Assembly: GCF_009789575.1 (NCBI RefSeq)
Contig: NZ_CP046908.1
Coordinates: forward strand, 3,067,001-3,131,000
Length of the DNA stretch: 64,000 nt
Reading direction: 5' to 3'
Origin: Stappia indica
GTDB lineage: Bacteria > Pseudomonadota > Alphaproteobacteria > Rhizobiales > Stappiaceae
The notes under the pieces: model-generated
Database searches by the model: none
The model's input: only the letters and a program-made list of their open reading frames with translations
What the model was told of the DNA's origin: nothing
Made by a program: the position numbers and the translations under genes
Shown here: in pieces, positions 38,053 to 47,590 of the stretch
How the letters are laid out: each line of letters begins with the position of its first letter
How positions within the stretch are numbered: position 1 is the stretch's first letter

Positions 38053-38255
38053 GGTGCCTCTCTGTGGCTGGTGTCACGGGTGTTGCCATGTCAACGCGCC
38101 AGGGGCCGGATCGTTTCGAAGAAATCCGGCATGGTTCGCCGCTCGCATCAGTGGGCGCTGAAGCCTGAGTTCAATCGCCGGATGTGGACGGGGCTGGAAA
38201 CCCGGCCAGGGATTGCCGATACTGACCCGGTGCCCAAGGGACGCCGGAACCGCGC

Positions 38256-38891
38256 ATGGACCTTTTCTCGCCGCTTGCCGCCATCGTTGCCGTCAATCTC
38301 GCCGCCTGGATCACGCCGGGCCCGAACATGCTTGCGGTGATCGCCGCCTCGCTTGCCGGTGGCCGCGTCCAGGGCATCGCCACCGGTACCGGGCTGGCGG
38401 CCGCGGCCACGCTCTGGGCGCTGGCGGCGGTTCTCGGCGTTGCGACGATGTTCGAGCTGTTCCCGCAGGTCGCGGTCGCGCTGAAGCTGGCAGGGGCTGC
38501 CTACCTGGTCTGGCTCGGGGCGAGGTCGTTGCGGACCGCCCTCCGGCAGGGCGCGAGCATGGAGACCGCCCGCCTTCCCTCTTCGTCCCTTCTCCGTGCC
38601 TTCCGCACCGGCTTTCTCGTCAGCATGACCAATCCGAAGGCGGCGCTGTTCTTCGGCTCGGTGATGACGGCCTTCGTTCCCGTGGCCGCGCCGGGCTGGT
38701 TCCTGGTCGCCGTCGTCGCGCTGTGCGGGGTGCTCGCCGTCCTTCTGCACGCGATCACGGCGACGGTCTTTTCCACGGGTGTGGCGCTGCGTGCCTTCGC
38801 GCGCGGCAGGCGCTGGATTTCCGGCCTGTTCGGCATCGCCTTCCTTGCCATGGGCGCGATGGTGGCGCATGCGGCGCTGCGCCGGGGCTGA
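38256..38891 (+). CDS. LysE/RhtB family amino acid exporter
   Basis: A 211-residue membrane protein with about six hydrophobic helices. ITPGPNMLAVIAASLAGGRVQGIATGTGLA is the family signature in the first helices, and GFLVSMTNPKAALFFGSVM is the second conserved stretch. Members export amino acids or homoserine lactones. It stands alone, upstream of a spermidine-synthase-like gene on the same strand. Substrate not predictable. Confidence 0.9.
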   Translation: MDLFSPLAAIVAVNLAAWITPGPNMLAVIAASLAGGRVQGIATGTGLAAAATLWALAAVLGVATMFELFPQVAVALKLAGAAYLVWLGARSLRTALRQGASMETARLPSSSLLRAFRTGFLVSMTNPKAALFFGSVMTAFVPVAAPGWFLVAVVALCGVLAVLLHAITATVFSTGVALRAFARGRRWISGLFGIAFLAMGAMVAHAALRRG

Positions 38892-38971
38892 ACAGGGCCG
38901 CGCTTGCCGCCGGGGGCCAAAGCGGCGATAAGCGGCGTCTTGCCGTCACGCCGCACCGGAAAGGGCCGCTC

Positions 38972-39685
38972 ATGTCCGTGTTTTTCGAGGAACTGGACTA
39001 TCGCCCGACGGCGATTGGGGCGGTGTCCCTGCGCCGCCGCCGCGACATGCGGCTGGGCGGCGACGTCTACGAGATCAAGCTCGGCGACGAGTTCCTGATG
39101 TCGAGCTTCTTCACCGTCTCGGAGATTGCGCTCGCACGGCTCGGCCTCGATGCGGTGTCCGGTGCGCGCCCGGACGTGGTGGTCGGCGGGCTGGGCCTCG
39201 GCTACACGGCAAGGACCGTGCTGGAGCGGCCGGAGACGGGCTCGCTCGTCGTCGTCGAGATGCTCGAGCCGGTGATCGACTGGCATCGCGACGGCTTGCT
39301 GCCGCTTGGAGCCGGGATCGTCGCCGATCCGCGCTGCCGTCTGGTGCAGGGCGACTTCTTTGCCATGGCCGCCGGCGAGGCGGGTTTCGATCCGCAAGCC
39401 CCGGGGCGGCGATTCGACGCGATCCTGCTCGACATCGACCATTCTCCGGAGGCGCTGCTCGACGCGCGCAGCACCAGCTTCTATCGCCCGGAAGGTCTTG
39501 AGGCGATGGCACGCTGGCTGAAGCCGGGAGGCATTTTCGGCCTGTGGTCCAACGAGGCGCCCGACGCCGCCTTCACCGCGCGGCTTGCCTCGGTCTTCGC
39601 CGAGGCCTGGGCGGAACCCGTCACCTTCGCCAACCCCTTGCAGGACGAGCCGTTCACCCAGACGGTCTATCTCGCCCGGGTCTAG
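38972..39685 (+). CDS. Spermidine synthase-like protein (SAM-dependent methyltransferase fold)
   Basis: A 237-residue protein with a Rossmann-like fold. VVVGGLGLGYTARTVL matches the glycine-rich motif I, VVVEMLEPVIDWHR the acidic motif, and AILLDIDHSPEALLD the DxD region seen in spermidine synthases, though it lacks the full N-terminal domain of true SpeE. Relatives are annotated as spermidine synthase-like or class I methyltransferases of unknown target. GAAAGG precedes the ATG at 38972. Downstream lies the SOS cassette after a gap with repeats. Confidence 0.8.
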   Translation: MSVFFEELDYRPTAIGAVSLRRRRDMRLGGDVYEIKLGDEFLMSSFFTVSEIALARLGLDAVSGARPDVVVGGLGLGYTARTVLERPETGSLVVVEMLEPVIDWHRDGLLPLGAGIVADPRCRLVQGDFFAMAAGEAGFDPQAPGRRFDAILLDIDHSPEALLDARSTSFYRPEGLEAMARWLKPGGIFGLWSNEAPDAAFTARLASVFAEAWAEPVTFANPLQDEPFTQTVYLARV

Positions 39686-39790: not shown

Positions 39791-39814
39791 ATTGATTCAC
39801 GTTTTTGAATCAAT
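39791..39814. promoter_or_regulatory. Eight-base inverted repeat upstream of the SOS operon
   Basis: ATTGATTC and GAATCAAT are perfect arms around ACGTTTTT, in an AT-rich patch about 50 bases before the SOS box. It may be an operator for a second regulator; on its own it lacks the GC-rich stem of a terminator. Confidence 0.4.
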
Positions 39815-39861: not shown

Positions 39862-39876
39862 GTTCTTATTTTGTTC
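39862..39876 (+). promoter_or_regulatory. LexA/SOS box (GTTC-N7-GTTC)
   Basis: GTTCTTATTTTGTTC fits the direct-repeat LexA site specific to alphaproteobacteria. It lies 12 bases before the start codon of the endonuclease III-like gene, the first of the imuA-imuB-dnaE2 operon, so LexA would block the whole unit until DNA damage. Confidence 0.88.
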
Positions 39877-39888
39877 TTTCATTCGGGC

Positions 39889-40587
39889 ATGCAATACACG
39901 TTGCCGCTCGTTGCCGATACCCGCCTTGCGCGGGTCCACGGACTGTTGCTTGCCCGGTTCGGTCCGGTGCCGGAGTGCTACCGGCTCGACCCGGTGAGCC
40001 AGCTCGTCTTCGCGATGCTGAGCGGCCGGACACGGGATGCGGTCGCCATGGAGGTCTTTGCAGCACTGGCCCGCCGGATGGGCGCATGGGAGCGGCTGGC
40101 GGAAACGGCGGCGAGCGAGCTGCAAGGCATCATCGCCGGGGTGACCTTCGCCGAGCGCAAGGCGCGGCAGATCCCGGCGGCCTTGCGCGAGATCGCGGCC
40201 CGGCGCGGACGGCTGGAGCTGGAGTTCCTGGCCCGGTGGCCGGTGGAGGAGGGGCGGGTCTGGCTGGAAGGCCTGACCGGGGTCGGCCCCAAGACCAGCA
40301 TGGCGGTGCTCGGCCTCAGCACGCTGAACCGCCGGGTGCTGATGGTCGACACCGCTCACAACCGGGTCGCCTGCCGGCTGGGCCTCGTGCCGGCGCGGGC
40401 CGATATTGCCCGCGCCACGCGGCTGCTCAATCGCCAGCTGCCTGCCGCATGGACTGCCAATGATACGGAAACCCACCATTTCCTGATGCAGGGGCTGGGC
40501 CGCAGCCATTGCGTCTACAGGGAGCCGCTTTGCCCGGATTGCCCGTTGTGCCGTCTCTGCCGGTCGGTGCCGGAGGGGCGGGCATGA
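39889..40587 (+). CDS. Endonuclease III-like HhH-GPD DNA glycosylase/lyase
   Basis: A 232-residue base-excision enzyme. The helix-hairpin-helix LEGLTGVGPKTSMAVLG contains Lys135, matching the catalytic lysine of Nth, and Asp154 in LMVDTAHNRVACRL matches the catalytic aspartate. The C-terminal [4Fe-4S] ligands are Cys208, 215, 218 and 224 (spacing C-X6-C-X2-C-X5-C). Nth removes oxidised pyrimidines and nicks the strand. I start at ATG 39889, just after the SOS box; upstream codons lie in the operator. It overlaps imuA by four bases. A glycosylase leading an SOS mutagenesis operon is unusual. Confidence 0.88.
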   Translation: MQYTLPLVADTRLARVHGLLLARFGPVPECYRLDPVSQLVFAMLSGRTRDAVAMEVFAALARRMGAWERLAETAASELQGIIAGVTFAERKARQIPAALREIAARRGRLELEFLARWPVEEGRVWLEGLTGVGPKTSMAVLGLSTLNRRVLMVDTAHNRVACRLGLVPARADIARATRLLNRQLPAAWTANDTETHHFLMQGLGRSHCVYREPLCPDCPLCRLCRSVPEGRA

Positions 40588-41381
40588 GGACCGGCGAGAC
40601 GCTGGCGGCGCTGCGCGCCCGCATCAAGGCGGGCGGACTGGACGAGGCCCCGGCCTGGCCGGCGGTCGAACTGGAGGGGGAGGCGGGACCGCAAGGCACG
40701 GTGCTGCCCGGCGGGCTGGCGAGCGGGGCGCTGCATGAGCTGCAGCCGGCGACGCCGGCCGATATCGGGGCGGCGACCGGGTTTGCCCTGGGGCTGGCCT
40801 CGCGATTGCTGGCGCGCCGTCCCGGCCCGCTCCTGTGGGGGCTGCCGTCGACGCGGGGCTGGCGGGAAGGGCAGCTTTATCCGGTCGGGCTTGGCGCCTT
40901 CGGCATCGATCCGGACCGGGTGATCCAGGTCGAGGTGAGGAAGACCGCCGACCTCCTGTGGAGCCTGGAGGAGGCGCTGGACCATCCCTCGCTCGCCGTC
41001 GTCGTCGGCCTGCTGCCCGAAGGCGACCGGCTCTACGACTTTACGGCAAGCCGAAGGCTGGCGATGCGCGCCGCCCGCCACGGGGCGACGGTGCTGCTGC
41101 TGGGGGCGGCACCGGTCTTCGACATGGCAACGGCCGCCTCTACCCGCTGGTCGCTGGCGGCGCTGGCCAGTCGGCCCGTGCCCCATACCGGTCATGCGGT
41201 GCCGGGCCTCGGCCCGCCGCGCTGGCAGGCCCGGCTGGTGAAATCGCGCAAGGGTCTCCTGGATGCCTGGGATCTCGAGTGGAACCATGAAACGCTGTCT
41301 TTCCGTCTGGCTGCCCCGCTGGCCGACAGAGCGCCGCTCCGCCGGTCCGGCCGGCTCTCGCGGCGGCCGACTGCCGCCTGA
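40584..41381 (+). CDS. imuA: ImuA, SOS mutasome accessory protein
   Basis: A 265-residue RecA-like protein of the ImuA family. It supports ImuB and DnaE2 in error-prone translesion synthesis. Its core GALHELQPATPADIGAATGFALGLASRLLARRPGPLLW and DRVIQVEVRKTADLLWSLEEAL are typical, and no intact Walker A motif is seen. GGAGGGG lies before the ATG, which overlaps the glycosylase stop. It overlaps imuB by 95 bases, more than usual, indicating coupled translation. Confidence 0.88.
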   Translation: MRTGETLAALRARIKAGGLDEAPAWPAVELEGEAGPQGTVLPGGLASGALHELQPATPADIGAATGFALGLASRLLARRPGPLLWGLPSTRGWREGQLYPVGLGAFGIDPDRVIQVEVRKTADLLWSLEEALDHPSLAVVVGLLPEGDRLYDFTASRRLAMRAARHGATVLLLGAAPVFDMATAASTRWSLAALASRPVPHTGHAVPGLGPPRWQARLVKSRKGLLDAWDLEWNHETLSFRLAAPLADRAPLRRSGRLSRRPTAA

Positions 41382-42858
41382 CGAGGCCGGACCTCTCGTG
41401 CTCTCCGTGCTGGAGCAGAACGGGGCAAGGGTCAGCGCGGTCAACGCGCCCGCCGCTGCGCTCGGCCTTGTGCCGGGCATGCCGCTGGCGGATGCGCGGG
41501 CGATCCATCCCGCCCTCGGCGTCGCGCCGGCGGACCCGGACGGCGATGCGCAAGGGCTGCGCCGGCTCGCCCTGTGGTGCCAGCGCTACAGCCCGCTCAC
41601 CCGCATCGATGCGCCGGACGGGGTGTCCATCGACATTGCCGGCTGCGCCCATCTGTTCGGCGGCGAAGAGGCGCTGATGGCGGATCTCGCCGACCGGCTG
41701 CACGGCTTCGGGCTGACCGCCAGGCTTGCCCTCGCGCCGACGCTCGGGGCCGCCTGGGCGCTCTCCCGCTATGGCACGCCGATGGTGCAGGTGGCGCCCG
41801 GCGAGGTAGGCGAGGTTCTGGCACCGCTGCCCGTTGCGGCCCTGCGCATCGAGGCGGAGACGGCGCGCGCGCTGACGCGGCTCGGTCTCGACCGGATCGG
41901 CCTTCTCGTCGGCAAGCCGCGCGCGCCGCTCGCCGGCCGCTTCGGCCCGCTCCTGGTCCTGCGGCTCGACCAGGCCTTGGGGCGCGAGGGCGAGCGGTTC
42001 GATCCCGTCGAGGCCGCGCCCGTCTACCGGATCGCTCGCAACTTCGCCGAGCCGGTCGTCACGCTGGAGGCCATCGGCGAGGTGGCCGCGCGGCTGACCG
42101 GAGAGCTTGCCGGGATGCTGCAGGGCCTCGGCAAGGCGGCGCGGCGGCTGGAACTGGCGCTCTATCGCGTCGACGGCTGGCGCGAGGCGCTGGAGCTGCG
42201 CATCACCCGGCCGAGCAACGATGCCGCGCATCTTTTGCGCCTGCTCGGCGAGCGGCTCGACCGGCTGCGCGACCATGCCGGCTTCGGCTTCGAGGCAGCC
42301 GTGCTCTCCGCCTTCGAGGTGGAGCGCACTGAGGCGGTGCAGGCGGCGCTGTCGGGGCGCGAGCACAGCCCTCCGCCGATGGACGATCTCGACCGGCTGC
42401 TCGACCGGCTGGTCAACCGCTTCGGGCCCGAGCGGGTCTCCCGCTTCGCGCCGCGCGAGAGCCATGTGCCGGAGCGTTCCTGCCATCCGGTTTCCGCGCT
42501 TGTGCAAGTGGCCCGCCACGACTGGGCCGCCCATGGCCAGGCCCTGCACGGCGGTGTCACGCTGGCCCGCCCGCCGCTGCTGTTCGCCCGGCCTGAGCCG
42601 GTGGAGGTGCTGGTGGAGATGCCGGACAAACCGCCGGCGCGCTTCGAGTGGCGGCGCACCGCGCACCGGATCGTGCGGGCGGAAGGGCCGGAGCGGATCG
42701 CGCCGGAATGGTGGGCCGGCGGCGAGGCCAACCGGCTGACCCGCGACTATTACCGCGTCGAGGACACGGAAGGGCGACGCTTCTGGCTGTTCCGCGAAGG
42801 TCTCTACGACCGATCCGGCGACACGGTGCGCTGGTTCGTGCATGGGCTGTTCGCATGA
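41287..42858 (+). CDS. imuB: ImuB, non-catalytic Y-family polymerase-like protein
   Basis: A 523-residue Y-family homologue. The N-terminal MKRCLSVWLPRWPTERR lacks the catalytic Asp of true polymerases, and SIDIAGCAHLFGGE stands where polymerases have SIDE, so it is a bridging protein rather than an enzyme. ImuB links the beta clamp, ImuA and DnaE2. ATG 41287 has GAGTGGA before it and gives the family N terminus. Translation is coupled to dnaE2 by an ATGA overlap. Confidence 0.9.
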   Translation: MKRCLSVWLPRWPTERRSAGPAGSRGGRLPPDEAGPLVLSVLEQNGARVSAVNAPAAALGLVPGMPLADARAIHPALGVAPADPDGDAQGLRRLALWCQRYSPLTRIDAPDGVSIDIAGCAHLFGGEEALMADLADRLHGFGLTARLALAPTLGAAWALSRYGTPMVQVAPGEVGEVLAPLPVAALRIEAETARALTRLGLDRIGLLVGKPRAPLAGRFGPLLVLRLDQALGREGERFDPVEAAPVYRIARNFAEPVVTLEAIGEVAARLTGELAGMLQGLGKAARRLELALYRVDGWREALELRITRPSNDAAHLLRLLGERLDRLRDHAGFGFEAAVLSAFEVERTEAVQAALSGREHSPPPMDDLDRLLDRLVNRFGPERVSRFAPRESHVPERSCHPVSALVQVARHDWAAHGQALHGGVTLARPPLLFARPEPVEVLVEMPDKPPARFEWRRTAHRIVRAEGPERIAPEWWAGGEANRLTRDYYRVEDTEGRRFWLFREGLYDRSGDTVRWFVHGLFA

Positions 42859-45800
42859 CGGCGGCCTTCGCGGAACTGGTGGCGACCAGCAATTTCAGCT
42901 TCCTGCGTGGTGCCTCGCATGCGGCGGAGCTGGTGGAGACGGCAGCCCGGCTGGGGCTCGCCGCCATCGGCATCGCCGACCGCAACACGCTGGCCGGCGT
43001 CGTGCGGGCGCATGTGGCCGCGCGCGAGCACGGCGTACGCCTGATCGTCGGGGCGCGGCTGGTGCTGCGCGACGGGTTCCAGCTGGTCGTCCATCCGCAG
43101 GACCGGGAGGCCTATGGCCGGCTGAGCCGCCTGCTCACCCTCGGCAACCGGCGAGCGCCGAAGGGGGAATGTCATCTCGATTTCGCCGATCTCGGCGGGC
43201 TCGGGGAGGGGCAGCAGCTGATCGTCCTGCCGCCGCGCTGGCCCGGTGCCGCCTTTGCCGCCCGCCTTGAGGAACTGGGGCGCGGTTTCCCCGGCGCCGT
43301 CTCGCTGGCCCTGTCGCCCGCCCATCGCGGCGACGACCGGACCCGCTTCGACCGCCTGGCCGGTCTGGCCGAGACCTGTCGCACGCCGCTGGTCGCCACC
43401 AACGACGTGCTCTATCACGTGCCCGAGCGCCGCCCCTTGCAGGACGTGCTCACCTGTATCCGCGAGCACGTCACCATCGATGCGGCGGGTTTTCTGCTCG
43501 AGCCGAATGCGGAGCGGCACCTGAAGCCGCCGCAGGAAATGGCGCGGCTCCTGTCCGGCTATGAACAGGCGCTGCAGCGCAGCCTGGAGATCGCCGCGCG
43601 CTGCCGGTTTAACCTCGACGAACTGAAGCCGCATTATCCGGACGAGCCGGCGGGCGAGAGCGCGACGCCGCAGGAGGAGCTGGAGCGGCTGGCCTGGCTG
43701 GGCGCCGACAACCGGTTTCCGCAAGGCATCCCGGGCGATGTACATGCGAATATCGCGCGCGAGCTGCGGCTGATCGGCGAGCTCGGCTACGCCTCCTATT
43801 TTCTCACCGTCTACGACATTGTCCGCTTCGCCCGCAGCCAGGATCCGCCGATCCTGTGCCAGGGGCGCGGGTCCTCGGCCAATTCCGTCGTCTGCTATTG
43901 CCTCGGCATCACCTCGGTCAATCCGACCGAGATCGACCTGTTGTTCGAGCGCTTCGTGTCGGCGGCGCGGGGCGAGCCGCCGGACATCGACGTCGATTTC
44001 GAGCACGAGCGGCGCGAGGAAGTGATCCAGTACATATATGCGCGCTATGGCCGCGAACGCGCCGGCCTTGCCGCCACGGTGATCCGCTACCGCGCCCGCA
44101 GCGCCGTCAACGACGTCGGCAAGGCGATGGGCCTGTCGACCGACGTGGTCGGCGCCATGTCCGGCCTGATCTGGGGCTGGTCGGGGAACGCGCCGGCGGA
44201 AGGCGAGATCCGCCAGGCCGGGCTCGATGCGCGCGATCCCCGCCTGACGCAGACGGTCCGCCTCGTCCGCCAGCTGATCGACTTCCCGCGGCACCTGTCG
44301 CAGCATGTCGGCGGTTTCGTCATCACCCGCGAGCGCCTCGACGAGGTGGTCCCCATCGCCAATGCGGCGATGGAAGACCGCACCGTGGTGGAATGGGACA
44401 AGGACGATCTCGACGCGCTCGGCATCCTCAAGGTCGACGTGCTGGCGCTCGGCATGCTGACCTGCCTGCGCAAATGCTTCGATCTGCTGCGCGGCCATTA
44501 CGGGCGCGATATGGGGCTGGCCAGGGTGCCGCGCGACGATCCGGCGACCTATGCGATGATCCAGAAGGCCGACACGGTCGGCGTCTTCCAGATCGAAAGC
44601 CGGGCGCAGATGTCGATGCTGCCGCGCCTCAGGCCTGCAAACTTCTACGATCTCGTCATCCAGATCGCCATCGTCCGGCCCGGCCCGATCCAGGGCAACA
44701 TGGTCAATCCCTACCTGCAGCGGCGCAAGCACCCGGAGCTGGTCGCCTATCCCTCGCCCGAGCTCGAAACCGTGCTGAAGAAGACGCTGGGCGTGCCGCT
44801 GTTCCAGGAACAGGCGATGAAGATCGCCATCGTCGGGGCCGGGTTTTCGCCGGACGATGCCGACCGGCTGCGCCGGGCGATGGCCTCCTTCCGCAACATC
44901 GGCACGATCGAGCAGTTCCGCGAGAAGTTCATCGCTGGGATGATCGCGAACAGGTACCAGCCCGATTTCGCCGACCGCTGCTTCGAGCAGATCAAGGGCT
45001 TCAGCGATTACGGGTTTCCCGAAAGCCATTCGGCAAGCTTCGCCCTGCTCGCCTATGCCTCGTCCTGGCTCAAGTGCCATTATCCGGAGGTCTTCGCCTG
45101 CGCGCTGCTGAACTCGCAGCCGATGGGTTTTTATTCCTCTGCCTCCATCGTGCGGGACCTGCGCGCCCATGGCGGGCGCGTGCTGCCGGTCGATGTCAAC
45201 CACAGCGACTGGGACCACACGCTGGAGGCCGATGAGCCTCCCGCTCGCAAGAAAGGGAGCGAGGGCGGCAGTGCCTTCGCCCTGCGGCTCGGCCTGCGCC
45301 AGGTCGACGGCTTGAGCGAGGAGGCGGGAGAGGCGCTGGTTGCCGCCCGCGGCATGGGCTTTGCGGATCTGGCCGACCTGCATGGCCGGGCCGGCCTCGA
45401 CAGCCGGGCGCTGGTGGCGCTCGCCAATGCGGATGCCTTCCGCTCGTTCGGCCTCGACCGGCGGCAGGCCTTGTGGGAAATCAAGGGACTGGCCGGCCGG
45501 CTCGGGCGCGCGGGCCGTCAGGACGACCTGCCGCTGTTCGGCGGCCGAAAGGGGCTGGCCTCGCTTGCCGCGAGGGAAGAGCAGGTGGAACTGCCGCGCA
45601 TGCGCCCGGGCGAGCATGTGGTGGAGGACTACGCAAGCCTGCACCTGTCGCTGAAGGCGCATCCCTTCATCTTCCTGCGCGGACGGCTCGATGCCCGCCG
45701 CAGCTTGCGCGCGTCCGATCTCGAGACGCAGGGCAACGGCCGGTTCGTGCGGGTCGCCGGCCTCGTGCTGGTGCGCCAGCGCCCGCAGACGGCCAAGAGC

Positions 45801-46103
45801 GTCACCTTCCTGACGCTGGAGGACGAGACGGGCATCGCCAATATCGTGGTTTGGAGCCGGATCTTCGAGCGCAGCCGCCGCATCGTCATGGGCGCGCGTG
45901 CCGTCCTGGTGGATGGCGCGATCCAGAAGGAGGACGGCGTCATCCATGTGGTGGCGCGGCAGCTCACAGACATCACGCCGGAGCTGATGGCCTCGCTGTC
46001 GAAGGACGCGCCGTCGCAGGAGGGGCCGAAGCTTTCGGGAGCGAGCCTGTGGCGGCACCCGCGCGACACGAGGGTGCTGCCGAAGGGGAGGAACTTTCAC
46101 TGA
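42855..46103 (+). CDS. dnaE2: DnaE2, error-prone DNA polymerase III alpha subunit
   Basis: A 1082-residue C-family polymerase, normal length for DnaE2 and shorter than replicative DnaE1. The N-terminal PHP domain starts FAELVATSNFSFLRGASH. The polymerase core has CQGRGSSANSVVCYCLGI and the catalytic acidic pair in PPDIDVDFEHERREEVIQYIY (residues about 375-395). The C-terminal OB fold is FVRVAGLVLVRQRPQTAKSVTFLTLEDETG. It carries out damage-induced mutagenesis with ImuA and ImuB. It begins in the ATGA shared with imuB and ends the SOS operon. Confidence 0.95.
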   Translation: MTAAFAELVATSNFSFLRGASHAAELVETAARLGLAAIGIADRNTLAGVVRAHVAAREHGVRLIVGARLVLRDGFQLVVHPQDREAYGRLSRLLTLGNRRAPKGECHLDFADLGGLGEGQQLIVLPPRWPGAAFAARLEELGRGFPGAVSLALSPAHRGDDRTRFDRLAGLAETCRTPLVATNDVLYHVPERRPLQDVLTCIREHVTIDAAGFLLEPNAERHLKPPQEMARLLSGYEQALQRSLEIAARCRFNLDELKPHYPDEPAGESATPQEELERLAWLGADNRFPQGIPGDVHANIARELRLIGELGYASYFLTVYDIVRFARSQDPPILCQGRGSSANSVVCYCLGITSVNPTEIDLLFERFVSAARGEPPDIDVDFEHERREEVIQYIYARYGRERAGLAATVIRYRARSAVNDVGKAMGLSTDVVGAMSGLIWGWSGNAPAEGEIRQAGLDARDPRLTQTVRLVRQLIDFPRHLSQHVGGFVITRERLDEVVPIANAAMEDRTVVEWDKDDLDALGILKVDVLALGMLTCLRKCFDLLRGHYGRDMGLARVPRDDPATYAMIQKADTVGVFQIESRAQMSMLPRLRPANFYDLVIQIAIVRPGPIQGNMVNPYLQRRKHPELVAYPSPELETVLKKTLGVPLFQEQAMKIAIVGAGFSPDDADRLRRAMASFRNIGTIEQFREKFIAGMIANRYQPDFADRCFEQIKGFSDYGFPESHSASFALLAYASSWLKCHYPEVFACALLNSQPMGFYSSASIVRDLRAHGGRVLPVDVNHSDWDHTLEADEPPARKKGSEGGSAFALRLGLRQVDGLSEEAGEALVAARGMGFADLADLHGRAGLDSRALVALANADAFRSFGLDRRQALWEIKGLAGRLGRAGRQDDLPLFGGRKGLASLAAREEQVELPRMRPGEHVVEDYASLHLSLKAHPFIFLRGRLDARRSLRASDLETQGNGRFVRVAGLVLVRQRPQTAKSVTFLTLEDETGIANIVVWSRIFERSRRIVMGARAVLVDGAIQKEDGVIHVVARQLTDITPELMASLSKDAPSQEGPKLSGASLWRHPRDTRVLPKGRNFH

Positions 46104-46128: not shown

Positions 46129-46785
46129 TCAGGCGGCTGCGCGCCGGAGCGTGTAATGCGCGATGCCGTGCTCGCCCGCAGTGACAGTCACGCTGCCGAG
46201 GCCGCAGGCCGGAAGATCGAGCCCCTGCAGCAGGTTTTCGCCCTTGCCCATCACCACGGGCGCGACCGCAAGATGCATCTCGTCGATGAGGCCGGCCTCA
46301 AGATACTGGCGCAAGGTCGAGACGCCGCCGCCGACCCGCACGTCGCGGCCGCCGGCCGCAGCCCTTGCACGCTCCAGCGCCGCAGGGATGCCGTCGGTGA
46401 CGAAATGGAACACCGTCCCGCCCTCCATCTCGAAGCTGGCGCGCGGGTGGCGGGTCAGGACGAAAACGTCGCAGTGAAAGGGCGGAGTAGTGCCCCACCA
46501 CCCTTTCCAGCTGTCGTCCGGCCAGGGGCCGCGCACGGGTCCGAACATGTTCCGTCCGATGATCCAGGCGCCGACAGTCTCGAAGCTGCGGGCGACGAAA
46601 TCCTCGTTGATGCCCGTCCGGCCGCCGCCTTCGCCCAGCACCCGTCGACGGAAGCTCGGTGTGTCGAACATCCACTGGTGCAGGCCTTCGGCGCCGACGC
46701 CGACTGGGGCCTCCGGTCCCTGGTCGGGGCCGGCGCCGTAGCCGTCGAGCGACAGGGTGAAGCAGTTGACGCGAACTTTCGGCAT
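46129..46785 (-). CDS. RibD C-terminal/dihydrofolate reductase-like family protein
   Basis: A 218-residue reductase-fold protein. The N terminus VRVNCFTLSLDGYGAG resembles DHFR-like proteins, with GAWIIGRNMFGPVRGPW, DVFVLTRHPRA and GKGENLLQGLDL as the later NADP-region motifs. Members reduce pteridine- or ribityl-type substrates; many are of unknown role. AGAGGG precedes the ATG at 46785. Divergent from an HxlR regulator, with a shared inverted repeat between, so it is probably controlled by it. Convergent with dnaE2, 25 bases apart. Confidence 0.85.
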   Translation of the reverse strand: MPKVRVNCFTLSLDGYGAGPDQGPEAPVGVGAEGLHQWMFDTPSFRRRVLGEGGGRTGINEDFVARSFETVGAWIIGRNMFGPVRGPWPDDSWKGWWGTTPPFHCDVFVLTRHPRASFEMEGGTVFHFVTDGIPAALERARAAAGGRDVRVGGGVSTLRQYLEAGLIDEMHLAVAPVVMGKGENLLQGLDLPACGLGSVTVTAGEHGIAHYTLRRAAA

Positions 46786-46812
46786 GGCGCCCTCTAAACT
46801 GATTGCAAATTG

Positions 46813-46859
46813 AAACTGGTTGTTTTGTCGCATGACCGATCCTACTTTGCAACCGGTTT
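46813..46859. promoter_or_regulatory. Divergent operator with inverted AAACTGGTTG sites
   Basis: AAACTGGTTG (46813-46822) and CAACCGGTTT (46850-46859) are inverted with 9 of 10 bases matching. They lie midway between the reductase gene and the HxlR gene. A TTGCAA lies beside each arm. This is the probable HxlR binding site. Confidence 0.5.
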
Positions 46860-46872
46860 TGGTGAGGGATGC

Positions 46873-47394
46873 ATGCAAGGAATCGAGCGACGGTCGGGCT
46901 GCCCGATCAATCTGGCGATGGAAGTGCTGGGGGACCGCTGGAGCCTGGTCGTCATCCGCGACATGATGTTCGGCAATCGCCGGCATTTCCGCGAGCTGCT
47001 GGCCCGTTCGGAAGAAGGCATCGCCTCCAACATCCTGGCCGCCCGGCTGAAGCGGCTGGTTGCACTCGGTCTCATCACGAAGCGGGAGGATCCGAGCCAC
47101 AGCCAGAAGGCGATCTACAGCTTGGCCGAACCGGCGATTCAGCTGGTGCCGGTGCTGGCGGTGCTCGGCGCCTGGGGGTGCAGGCACCTGCCGGTCAGCG
47201 AGGAGCTGTCGATCCGCGCGCAGCTGCTGGAAGAGGGCCGCGAGCCAATGTGGAACGCCTTCATGGACGACCTGCGCCGTCTGCATGTGAACGATCCCGT
47301 CGCCGGTGCGAACGGGGCCATCGTCTCGCCGGTTCTGGTCGCGCTCACCAAGGCCTTTGACGCCGTGCGGGCGCGAACGGCGCCTGCCGGATAG
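46873..47394 (+). CDS. HxlR family transcriptional regulator
   Basis: A 173-residue winged-helix regulator. Residues about 9-95 read GCPINLAMEVLGDRWSLVVIRDMMFGNRRHFRELLA, the unmistakable HxlR opening, with a conserved Cys10 that in relatives senses oxidants or aldehydes. The last 70 residues are a helical extension. The ATG at 46873 follows GGTGAGGG; the frame extends 21 codons upstream through the operator. It is divergent from the DHFR-like gene and likely regulates it. Confidence 0.9.
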   Translation: MQGIERRSGCPINLAMEVLGDRWSLVVIRDMMFGNRRHFRELLARSEEGIASNILAARLKRLVALGLITKREDPSHSQKAIYSLAEPAIQLVPVLAVLGAWGCRHLPVSEELSIRAQLLEEGREPMWNAFMDDLRRLHVNDPVAGANGAIVSPVLVALTKAFDAVRARTAPAG

Positions 47395-47590
47395 GCTCCT
47401 CTCGGGTGCCATCCGTGGGGCTATCCTTGGGCGCCTCGCCGTGGCCCTACCCTCTGCCTGCGATTCCCTCAAGATGTCGGCCGGGCCGATTGCCGGGGCA
47501 CGAGCCCCTGCAGGAAGGCTGCATATCCGCCTTCGCTCTGCTGCGGGCGGCGGGTCGAACATTTAGCCGGATCTCCTGTCTTTGGCGTTC

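What the first reader, a model, noticed from the sequence alone, without database searches (positions are those of the whole stretch)
39862..46103. SOS-controlled mutasome operon led by an endonuclease III-like glycosylase
The GTTC-N7-GTTC LexA box lies just before the HhH-GPD gene, which overlaps imuA, which overlaps imuB, which overlaps dnaE2. The imuA-imuB-dnaE2 trio is known; the added base-excision enzyme is not part of the standard cassette as I know it. It would couple removal of oxidised bases to error-prone gap filling.
Basis: partly seen in the sequence, partly recalled or inferred. Interest (0 to 1): 0.62.

Follow-up and report, generated by a model that had tools for sequence, protein, structure and literature searches.

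The report
Clamp-docking DNA glycosylase in mutasome operon
In this marine bacterium the DNA-damage-induced genes for error-prone DNA synthesis begin with a gene for a base-removing repair enzyme, which belongs to a little-known family that carries a probable docking tag for the replication clamp and has been joined to the same gene set several times in evolution.

Summary
A GTTC-N7-GTTC box (39862-39876) begins 27 bp before the ATG of an HhH-GPD gene (39889-40587), which overlaps imuA; imuB and dnaE2 follow, each overlapping the gene before. The host is Stappia-like.

The gene is not a standard Nth or MutY. It belongs to an alphaproteobacterial subfamily that mostly keeps the catalytic Lys/Asp and Fe-S cysteines and is set apart from Nth by a score gap and a 99/98 branch. 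Linkage to imuABC recurs in 15 genomes: upstream in four families, downstream of dnaE2 in one, and in one open frame with imuA in a sixth. On the tree linkage changes about 5 times; SOS association needs only 2 changes and may be ancestral. A perfect box precedes 58 of 102 members and 0 of 76 other HhH-GPD controls.

New here: most members start with a beta-clamp-binding-like peptide (MQYTLPL here; MQLSLPL, MQLPLG elsewhere): 75 of 102 versus 0 of 76.

Best reading: an SOS-induced glycosylase docked on the clamp that ImuB-DnaE2 use, clearing bases at gaps which DnaE2 fills.

The parts
39862..39876 (+). LexA (SOS) box GTTCTTATTTTGTTC, 27 bp from box start to the ATG
   Evidence: spacing of 26-28 bp also in L005-L007, L081, L085, L092, L096, L097; same box type by recA and mmcB in this genome
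39889..40587 (+). HhH-GPD DNA glycosylase, 232 aa, first gene of the operon
   Evidence: Pfam PF00730 E 2.6e-10; AlphaFold model mean pLDDT 94.9; best PDB folds are D. radiodurans EndoIII-1 and EndoIII-3
39892..39909 (+). Residues 2-7, QYTLPL: putative beta-clamp-binding motif in a flexible N-terminus
   Evidence: Q[LFYM].[LF] in 75 of 102 family members and 0 of 76 other HhH-GPD proteins; shuffled family mean 5.2, maximum 10; first ten residues pLDDT 58
40291..40293 (+). Lys135 of the helix-hairpin-helix (GVGPK), at the place of the Nth catalytic Lys
   Evidence: Lys in 40 of 43 members; the match to Nth Lys120 is recalled
40348..40350 (+). Asp154 (MVDT), at the place of the Nth catalytic Asp
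   Evidence: Asp in 42 of 43 members; role recalled
40510..40560 (+). Four Cys (208, 215, 218, 224; C-X6-C-X2-C-X5-C), probable 4Fe-4S site
   Evidence: 43, 43, 42 and 42 of 43 members; role recalled
40584..41381 (+). imuA, overlapping the glycosylase stop (ATGA)
   Evidence: NF033429 E 4.4e-07, under its cut-off; sequence
41287..42858 (+). imuB (inactive Y-family polymerase-like), overlapping imuA by 95 bp
   Evidence: PF00817 and PF11799
42855..46103 (+). dnaE2 (error-prone DNA polymerase), ATGA overlap with imuB
   Evidence: NCBIfam PRK05672, 1404.7 bits, cut-off 939

Best explanation
The first gene encodes a LexA-repressed Fe-S HhH-GPD DNA glycosylase that docks on the beta sliding clamp through its extreme N-terminal peptide (MQYTLPL). 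After DNA damage it is made together with ImuA, ImuB and DnaE2. ImuB brings DnaE2 to the clamp; the glycosylase sits on the same clamps, at gaps or behind the fork, removes damaged or wrongly paired bases there, and the resulting abasic or nicked tract is copied or filled by DnaE2. Supported by sequence: an SOS operator on the operon, an intact glycosylase fold with catalytic residues kept, and a conserved clamp-type motif. Inferred: LexA binding, clamp binding, base excision, and hand-over to DnaE2. The substrate is unknown.
For: Perfect forward box within about 110 bp upstream in 58 of 102 distinct family members and 0 of 76 other HhH-GPD proteins; background predicts 0.3%. On a 52-member tree SOS association (own box, or within an imu operon) needs 2 changes, 27 with and 25 without. 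imu linkage in 15 genomes of 6 families: six Stappia with imuA adjacent; upstream in G209, G299, G307, G395; downstream of dnaE2 in G204, G232, G171, G278; one open frame with imuA in G1259 (L217:1501-3063). Linkage changes 5 times on the tree, at least 4 forced. Clamp-type motif 75 of 102 versus 0 of 76; by the narrower QL.[LF] 64 versus 0. Some f64 members have MQLPLG, whose QLPL core is that of mycobacterial ImuB 352-QLPLWG-357, needed for mutasome function (PMC10421592, passages). Of 42 chosen genomes in which the gene is unlinked, 41 have ImuB; in the class sample 11 of 11 genomes with the gene have ImuB against 170 of 385 overall, hypergeometric P 1e-4. Caulobacter DnaE2 and ImuB act at gaps made by excision repair (PMC8102061, passages).
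Against: No binding, activity or expression data. Members are related and two families (f115, f64) dominate the sample, so the counts are not independent; in the 54-member set cut at 80% identity the motif stands in the first 14 residues of 33. The motif pattern was set after seeing the sequences, and the window's QYTL fits only the wider form. The published consensus QL(S/D)LF is described as C-terminal (PMC9690074, passage). Two branches have neither an upstream box nor imu linkage: one (f42, f103, f97) also lacks the motif, the other (most f64 rows) keeps it, and in at least seven loci follows a guaA-like gene; so SOS control and linkage are not essential to the family. Three of 43 members lack the Lys (L114 Glu, L225 Ala, L226 Arg) and one the Asp (L115 Glu). 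8 of 14 Stappia genomes have imuABC without this gene. ImuB clamp motifs do not differ cleanly between cassettes with and without the gene.
Confidence: 0.55

Rival explanations
1. Co-regulated passenger: the gene is an ordinary SOS-induced base-excision enzyme that shares the promoter, or is moved with the cassette, but works apart from ImuB-DnaE2.
For: 19 of the 52 tree members have their own SOS box and no imuABC in the flanks seen (about 8 kb for some, 1.5 kb for others); linkage is patchy within one genus; the Stappia cassette with the gene shares no neighbours, apart from generic matches in one locus, with the imuABC loci of relatives that lack it, and its ImuA is only 33-42% like theirs, which suggests that the whole cassette arrived as a unit.
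Against: Linkage arose or was lost several times, at both ends of the cassette and once as an apparent fusion; 41 of 42 chosen genomes with an unlinked member have ImuB.
Confidence: 0.25
2. Editor of translesion synthesis: the glycosylase removes bases wrongly inserted by DnaE2, or opposite a lesion, in the manner of MutY, with clamp orientation telling the new strand.
For: The HhH-GPD fold includes the mismatch enzymes MutY and the thymine-DNA glycosylase 1kea; docking on the clamp behind a polymerase is where an editor would act (inference).
Against: Too short for a MutY C-terminal domain (232 aa in all), and mutY scores only 44.3 bits against 286.5.
Confidence: 0.12
3. Non-catalytic or other role: the protein is a structural or competitive clamp ligand, or its N-terminal peptide binds something else.
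For: Three of 43 members have lost the catalytic Lys and one the Asp.
Against: Lys is kept in 40, Asp in 42 and the four Cys in 42 or 43 of 43 members.
Confidence: 0.06

Closest known systems
imuA-imuB-dnaE2 (imuABC) SOS mutagenesis cassette of Caulobacter and other Proteobacteria
   Same: Gene order imuA-imuB-dnaE2, overlapping genes, GTTC-N7-GTTC operator (box quoted in PMC9578287, passages)
   Different: Led by a glycosylase gene; elsewhere the same family follows dnaE2 or shares a frame with imuA
Deinococcus radiodurans EndoIII-1 (DR2438; NF053634, 'monofunctional DNA glycosylase')
   Same: Best curated model and among the best solved folds: 91 bits; PDB 4unf E 4e-20 by sequence and 1e-11 by fold
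   Different: Far under the model's cut-off of 400 bits; gene context and N-terminus of DR2438 were not looked at
Endonuclease III (Nth, TIGR01083) and MutY (TIGR01084)
   Same: HhH-GPD fold, catalytic Lys/Asp (Nth), Fe-S Cys
   Different: Scores 50.5 against 211.7 and 44.3 against 286.5; the genome has three other HhH-GPD genes; separate branch with 99/98 support against 8 outgroup rows; no clamp motif in 76 other HhH-GPD proteins
Caulobacter CC_2272 / CCNA_02355
   Same: CC_2272 is listed as a second Nth (PMC1839093, passages); CCNA_02355 is an early SOS gene with box GTTCttgttatGTTC (PMC12700426, passages); member L250 has exactly this box
   Different: That the two tags are one gene, and that it belongs to this family, is recall and inference, since genome names are withheld; the same box also stands before members L181 and L217, so it is not diagnostic
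Clamp-binding repair enzymes (mycobacterial Nei2 and XthA) and Hda
   Same: Repair enzyme docked on the sliding clamp (PMC9690074, passages); the Hda motif QLSLPL is recalled
   Different: Different enzyme families; here the tag is the extreme N-terminus and many genes are SOS-boxed

Membership tests
imuA-imuB-dnaE2 SOS cassette | imuA, imuB and dnaE2 in order and co-directional | tested here: met
   ImuA weak by model, identified mainly by place and homologues
imuA-imuB-dnaE2 SOS cassette | LexA operator upstream | tested here: met
   Box 39862-39876, conserved in relatives; LexA binding itself not testable
imuA-imuB-dnaE2 SOS cassette | Damage-induced mutagenesis depends on it | not testable with these tools
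   Needs a mutant
Endonuclease III (TIGR01083) | Score over the curated cut-off | tested here: not met
   50.5 bits, cut-off 211.7
Endonuclease III | Catalytic Lys/Asp and 4 Cys of the Fe-S cluster | tested here: met
   Present in the window protein and in 40 or more of 43 members; residue roles recalled
MutY (TIGR01084) | Score over the cut-off; C-terminal 8-oxoG domain | tested here: not met
   44.3 bits, cut-off 286.5; only 232 aa
NF053634 DR2438-type monofunctional glycosylase | Score over the curated cut-off | tested here: not met
   91.4 bits, cut-off 400; it is the top model for the window protein and matches 43 of 43 members at E 0.001
NF053634 DR2438-type monofunctional glycosylase | Glycosylase without lyase activity | not testable with these tools
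   Needs an assay
Beta-clamp-binding proteins | Motif near QL(S/D)LF or QxxLxL in a flexible segment | tested here: inconclusive
   QYTLPL at residues 2-7 fits QxxLxL (recalled form) but not QL(S/D)LF; family 75 of 102, controls 0 of 76; pLDDT 58
Beta-clamp-binding proteins | Physical binding to DnaN | not testable with these tools
   Only single chains could be modelled

The most novel reading that the evidence does not exclude
Alphaproteobacteria have an SOS arm of base-excision repair: a clamp-tethered glycosylase that is in effect a fourth mutasome component, so that base removal and error-prone synthesis are coupled on one clamp. SOS control is ancestral to the family, and the gene was drawn into the imuABC operon several times, at either end, and once fused to ImuA.
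Probability: 0.35. Interest if true: 0.8.

Novelty: new variant of a known kind. Interest (0 to 1): 0.6.

Why it matters
How the ImuA-ImuB-DnaE2 mutasome chooses its sites, and whether it serves excision repair as well as lesion bypass, is open. A glycosylase with its own clamp tag under the same LexA operator would make that directly testable: delete it, mutate its N-terminal peptide, or look at epistasis with dnaE2. It may also give a role to an SOS gene of Caulobacter for which the passages seen here give an induction profile but no function.

Tried and rejected
Box by number alone: rejected as evidence, since about one such motif is expected per 64 kb.

Single-protein search of named genomes found only 4 Stappia loci; profiles were needed to see the family.

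Idea that the glycosylase took over the clamp motif from ImuB: the motif column was compared in 21 ImuBs (12 from cassettes with the gene, 9 without). Gln is lost in L092 and L096 (with the gene), and the motif is also poor in L103-L106 (without). No clean pattern.

Genome size, family pattern and the box of L250 are the only support, and L181 (f64) and L217 share that box.

First tree labelling compared imu members only with the outgroup and said nothing about repeated gain; it was redone with proper labels.

Limits of the counts. In some searches at most 7 first-look candidates per genome were scored (3), so absences are not certain. Loci were given only for the best matches: 25 new loci plus 5 seen before, of 51 matches in g427. 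The 76 controls are HhH-GPD proteins scoring 56-116 bits with the family profile, mostly Nth by origin but not classified one by one. The 102 and 76 are distinct rows covering the profile from column 30 or earlier to 180 or later.

Rows dropped. L096: open frame cut short, on a 3.8 kb contig; left out of alignments and tree. L170 and L227: split frames, not counted as whole members (G708 and G1271 do count in the genome tallies); 99 of 102 gave usable starts, reduced at 80% identity to 54. Tree: 52 of 54 (L045, L212 dropped for doubtful starts), L217 cut to its first 245 residues, 8 controls as outgroup. A3: the window plus 42 of the 54. Tree labels were set by hand; the two rows with the gene after dnaE2 have no box of their own and were labelled SOS-associated through the box before imuA.

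Also negative: 27 of 102 members lack the motif; a looser pattern that asks for one more hydrophobic residue found 63, shuffled mean 14. Some of the 27 are near misses (MQTTLDF, MQRSFDF, MQSSFGF, MELPLG); the f42, f103 and f97 rows have none. With a wider look (first 60 residues of the open frame) 1 of 76 controls has the motif.

Full report
What is there. The window holds, on the + strand, a box GTTCTTATTTTGTTC at 39862-39876, an HhH-GPD gene at 39889-40587, imuA at 40584-41381, imuB at 41287-42858 and dnaE2 at 42855-46103, each gene overlapping the next. The four named relatives found are Stappia. The box motif alone is expected about once per window, so its weight comes from place and conservation: it begins 27 bp before the ATG, and relatives L005-L007 and L097 have a perfect box at 26-27 bp. 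In the same genome the A/T-rich form of the box occurs 8 times, against 2 for the reversed control pattern; one site lies by recA and one at the start of an mmcB gene. The other five were not tied to an SOS gene.

The enzyme. PF00730 is met, but no NCBIfam equivalog is: nth 50.5 of 211.7 bits, mutY 44.3 of 286.5, DR2438-type 91.4 of 400. The genome has three other HhH-GPD genes. The AlphaFold model from 43 members has mean pLDDT 94.9 with a loose first ten residues, 58; its best solved folds are Deinococcus EndoIII-1 and EndoIII-3. Lys135 is kept in 40, Asp154 in 42 and the four cysteines in 43, 43, 42 and 42 of 43 members, so catalysis is likely for most. Exceptions: L114, L225 and L226 at the Lys, L115 at the Asp.

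The family. Profile searches show a gap between members and other HhH-GPD proteins. Order: 20 of 397 genomes match at 3.3e-24 or better, the next match is 8.7e-17. Class: 11 of 385 genomes carry a member, at 208 bits or more for ten and in two split pieces (139 and 133 bits) in G708, against 106 bits or less for the rest. Phylum: all 12 matches at 208 bits or more lie in the same class, and the best outside it has 115 bits. In two further family samples 33 of 99 (f64) and 16 of 99 (f115) genomes have it, and in genus g427 51 of 75. At most 7 candidates per genome were scored. The family is one side of a 99/98 branch against 8 outgroup rows. Within the window's genus 6 of 14 genomes have it, whereas all 14 have an imuA match; in the 8 without it imuABC is more divergent, and of the window's flanking frames only generic matches were found beside it, in L106.

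Linkage to the mutasome. In the order sample 12 of 20 members lie beside imuABC: four Stappia and G209, G299, G307, G395 before imuA; G204, G232, G171, G278 after dnaE2. The other 8 do not within the stretches fetched, about 8 kb each side (about 3 kb on one side for G359, whose ImuB is on another contig). Two further Stappia genomes, G081 and G084, have it before imuA as well. In G1259 the glycosylase and ImuA share one open frame of 520 residues behind an SOS box, with ImuB next; this is one draft assembly (82% complete, 4% contamination), and Pfam confirms only the glycosylase half, the ImuA half resting on a BLAST match (E 2e-14). That makes 15 genomes in 6 families. On a 52-member tree linkage needs 5 changes, at least 4 forced by well supported branches; gains and losses are not told apart.

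SOS boxes without linkage. A perfect forward box lies just upstream of 58 of 102 distinct members and of 0 of 76 controls; background predicts 0.3%. All 25 loci newly given from g427 have one; 21 further matches there were not given as loci. On the tree SOS association needs only 2 changes, so it may well be ancestral, with loss in the f42-like branch and in most of f64. I take genus g427 to be Caulobacter from its size and family pattern (not named by any search). L250 there has exactly the box published for CCNA_02355, an early SOS gene (PMC12700426, passages), but L217 and L181, from other genera, have the same box, so this is only suggestive. CC_2272 is listed as a second Nth of Caulobacter (PMC1839093, passages). 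That these two tags are the same gene is recalled.

The N-terminal tag. Most members begin with a peptide like a beta-clamp-binding motif: MQYTLPL in the window; MQLSLPL, MQLPLG, MQLSLG, MQFDLAF, MQTTLDF or IQLGLDF elsewhere. Q[LFYM].[LF] occurs before the domain in 75 of 102 members and 0 of 76 controls; shuffled family mean 5.2, maximum 10. This pattern was chosen after seeing the sequences; the narrower QL.[LF] gives 64 and 0, and in the 54-member reduced set the two patterns stand in the first 14 residues of 33 and 27. The consensus QL(S/D)LF, there called C-terminal, is from PMC9690074 (passages); mycobacterial ImuB uses QLPLWG and needs it (PMC10421592, passages); an N-terminal example, Hda, is recalled. 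The f42, f103 and f97 members, which also lack an SOS box, have no such tag; most f64 rows lack a box but keep it.

Co-occurrence. All 11 genomes with the gene in the class sample have ImuB, against 170 of 385 overall (P 1e-4), and 41 of 42 chosen genomes in which the gene is not linked to imuABC have ImuB. Genome size and ancestry confound this.

Mechanism. The simplest reading is a glycosylase recruited to the clamps that ImuB-DnaE2 also use. In Caulobacter DnaE2 and ImuB act on gaps from nucleotide excision repair in non-replicating cells (PMC8102061, passages), so coupling of excision to this polymerase has a precedent. The rivals are a co-regulated passenger and an editor of DnaE2 errors.

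Known or new. Surveys of SOS and DnaE2 neighbourhoods (PMC3765255, PMC6511836, PMC12926913; passages only) did not mention a glycosylase in this place in the passages seen; PMC3765255 mentions uracil-DNA glycosylases with DUF4130, and the term glycosylase has no occurrence in PMC12926913. Ten searches of the held library showed no description of it. The Caulobacter papers of 2005 and 2008 are not held, and the 2006 cassette survey was not among the papers listed, so prior mention cannot be excluded.

Noticed in passing
window 39791-39814: A palindrome ATTGATTCA-N6-TGAATCAAT lies about 50 bp before the SOS box; a similar one (GATTCA-N6-TGAATC) precedes the gene in L097. Terminator of the upstream gene or another operator.
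   Followed up: no
window 38256-38891 and 38213-39685: A LysE-type translocator gene, and a spermine-synthase-like methyltransferase reading frame (just under its Pfam cut-off), precede the operon; the latter has a 71% identical counterpart before the operon in L097.
   Followed up: partly
window 46129-47562 (-) and 46810-47394 (+): After dnaE2 come a RibD C-terminal domain (dihydrofolate-reductase-like) frame and an HxlR regulator frame on opposite strands.
   Followed up: partly
L091:5137 (-) and L093:10690 (+): A second perfect SOS box, GTTCTCTATTTGTTC, lies about 3 kb beyond the glycosylase gene in two f50 genomes; the gene it serves was not identified.
   Followed up: no
L253:1501-1515 (this genome, C1:382703-382717): An SOS-type box lies about 240 bp from a start of an open frame with PHP and DNA_pol3_alpha domains, perhaps replicative dnaE1.
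   Followed up: partly
L169, L187, L191, L197, L198, L202, L208: In these f64 loci the family follows a guaA-like gene (named by eye) within 200 bp; in L169, L186, L189 and L200 a second Nth-like frame follows it.
   Followed up: partly
L098-L106 against the window: Stappia-like genomes without the glycosylase carry a more divergent imuABC (ImuA 33-42% identical) at what looks like another place, which suggests replacement of the cassette by transfer.
   Followed up: partly
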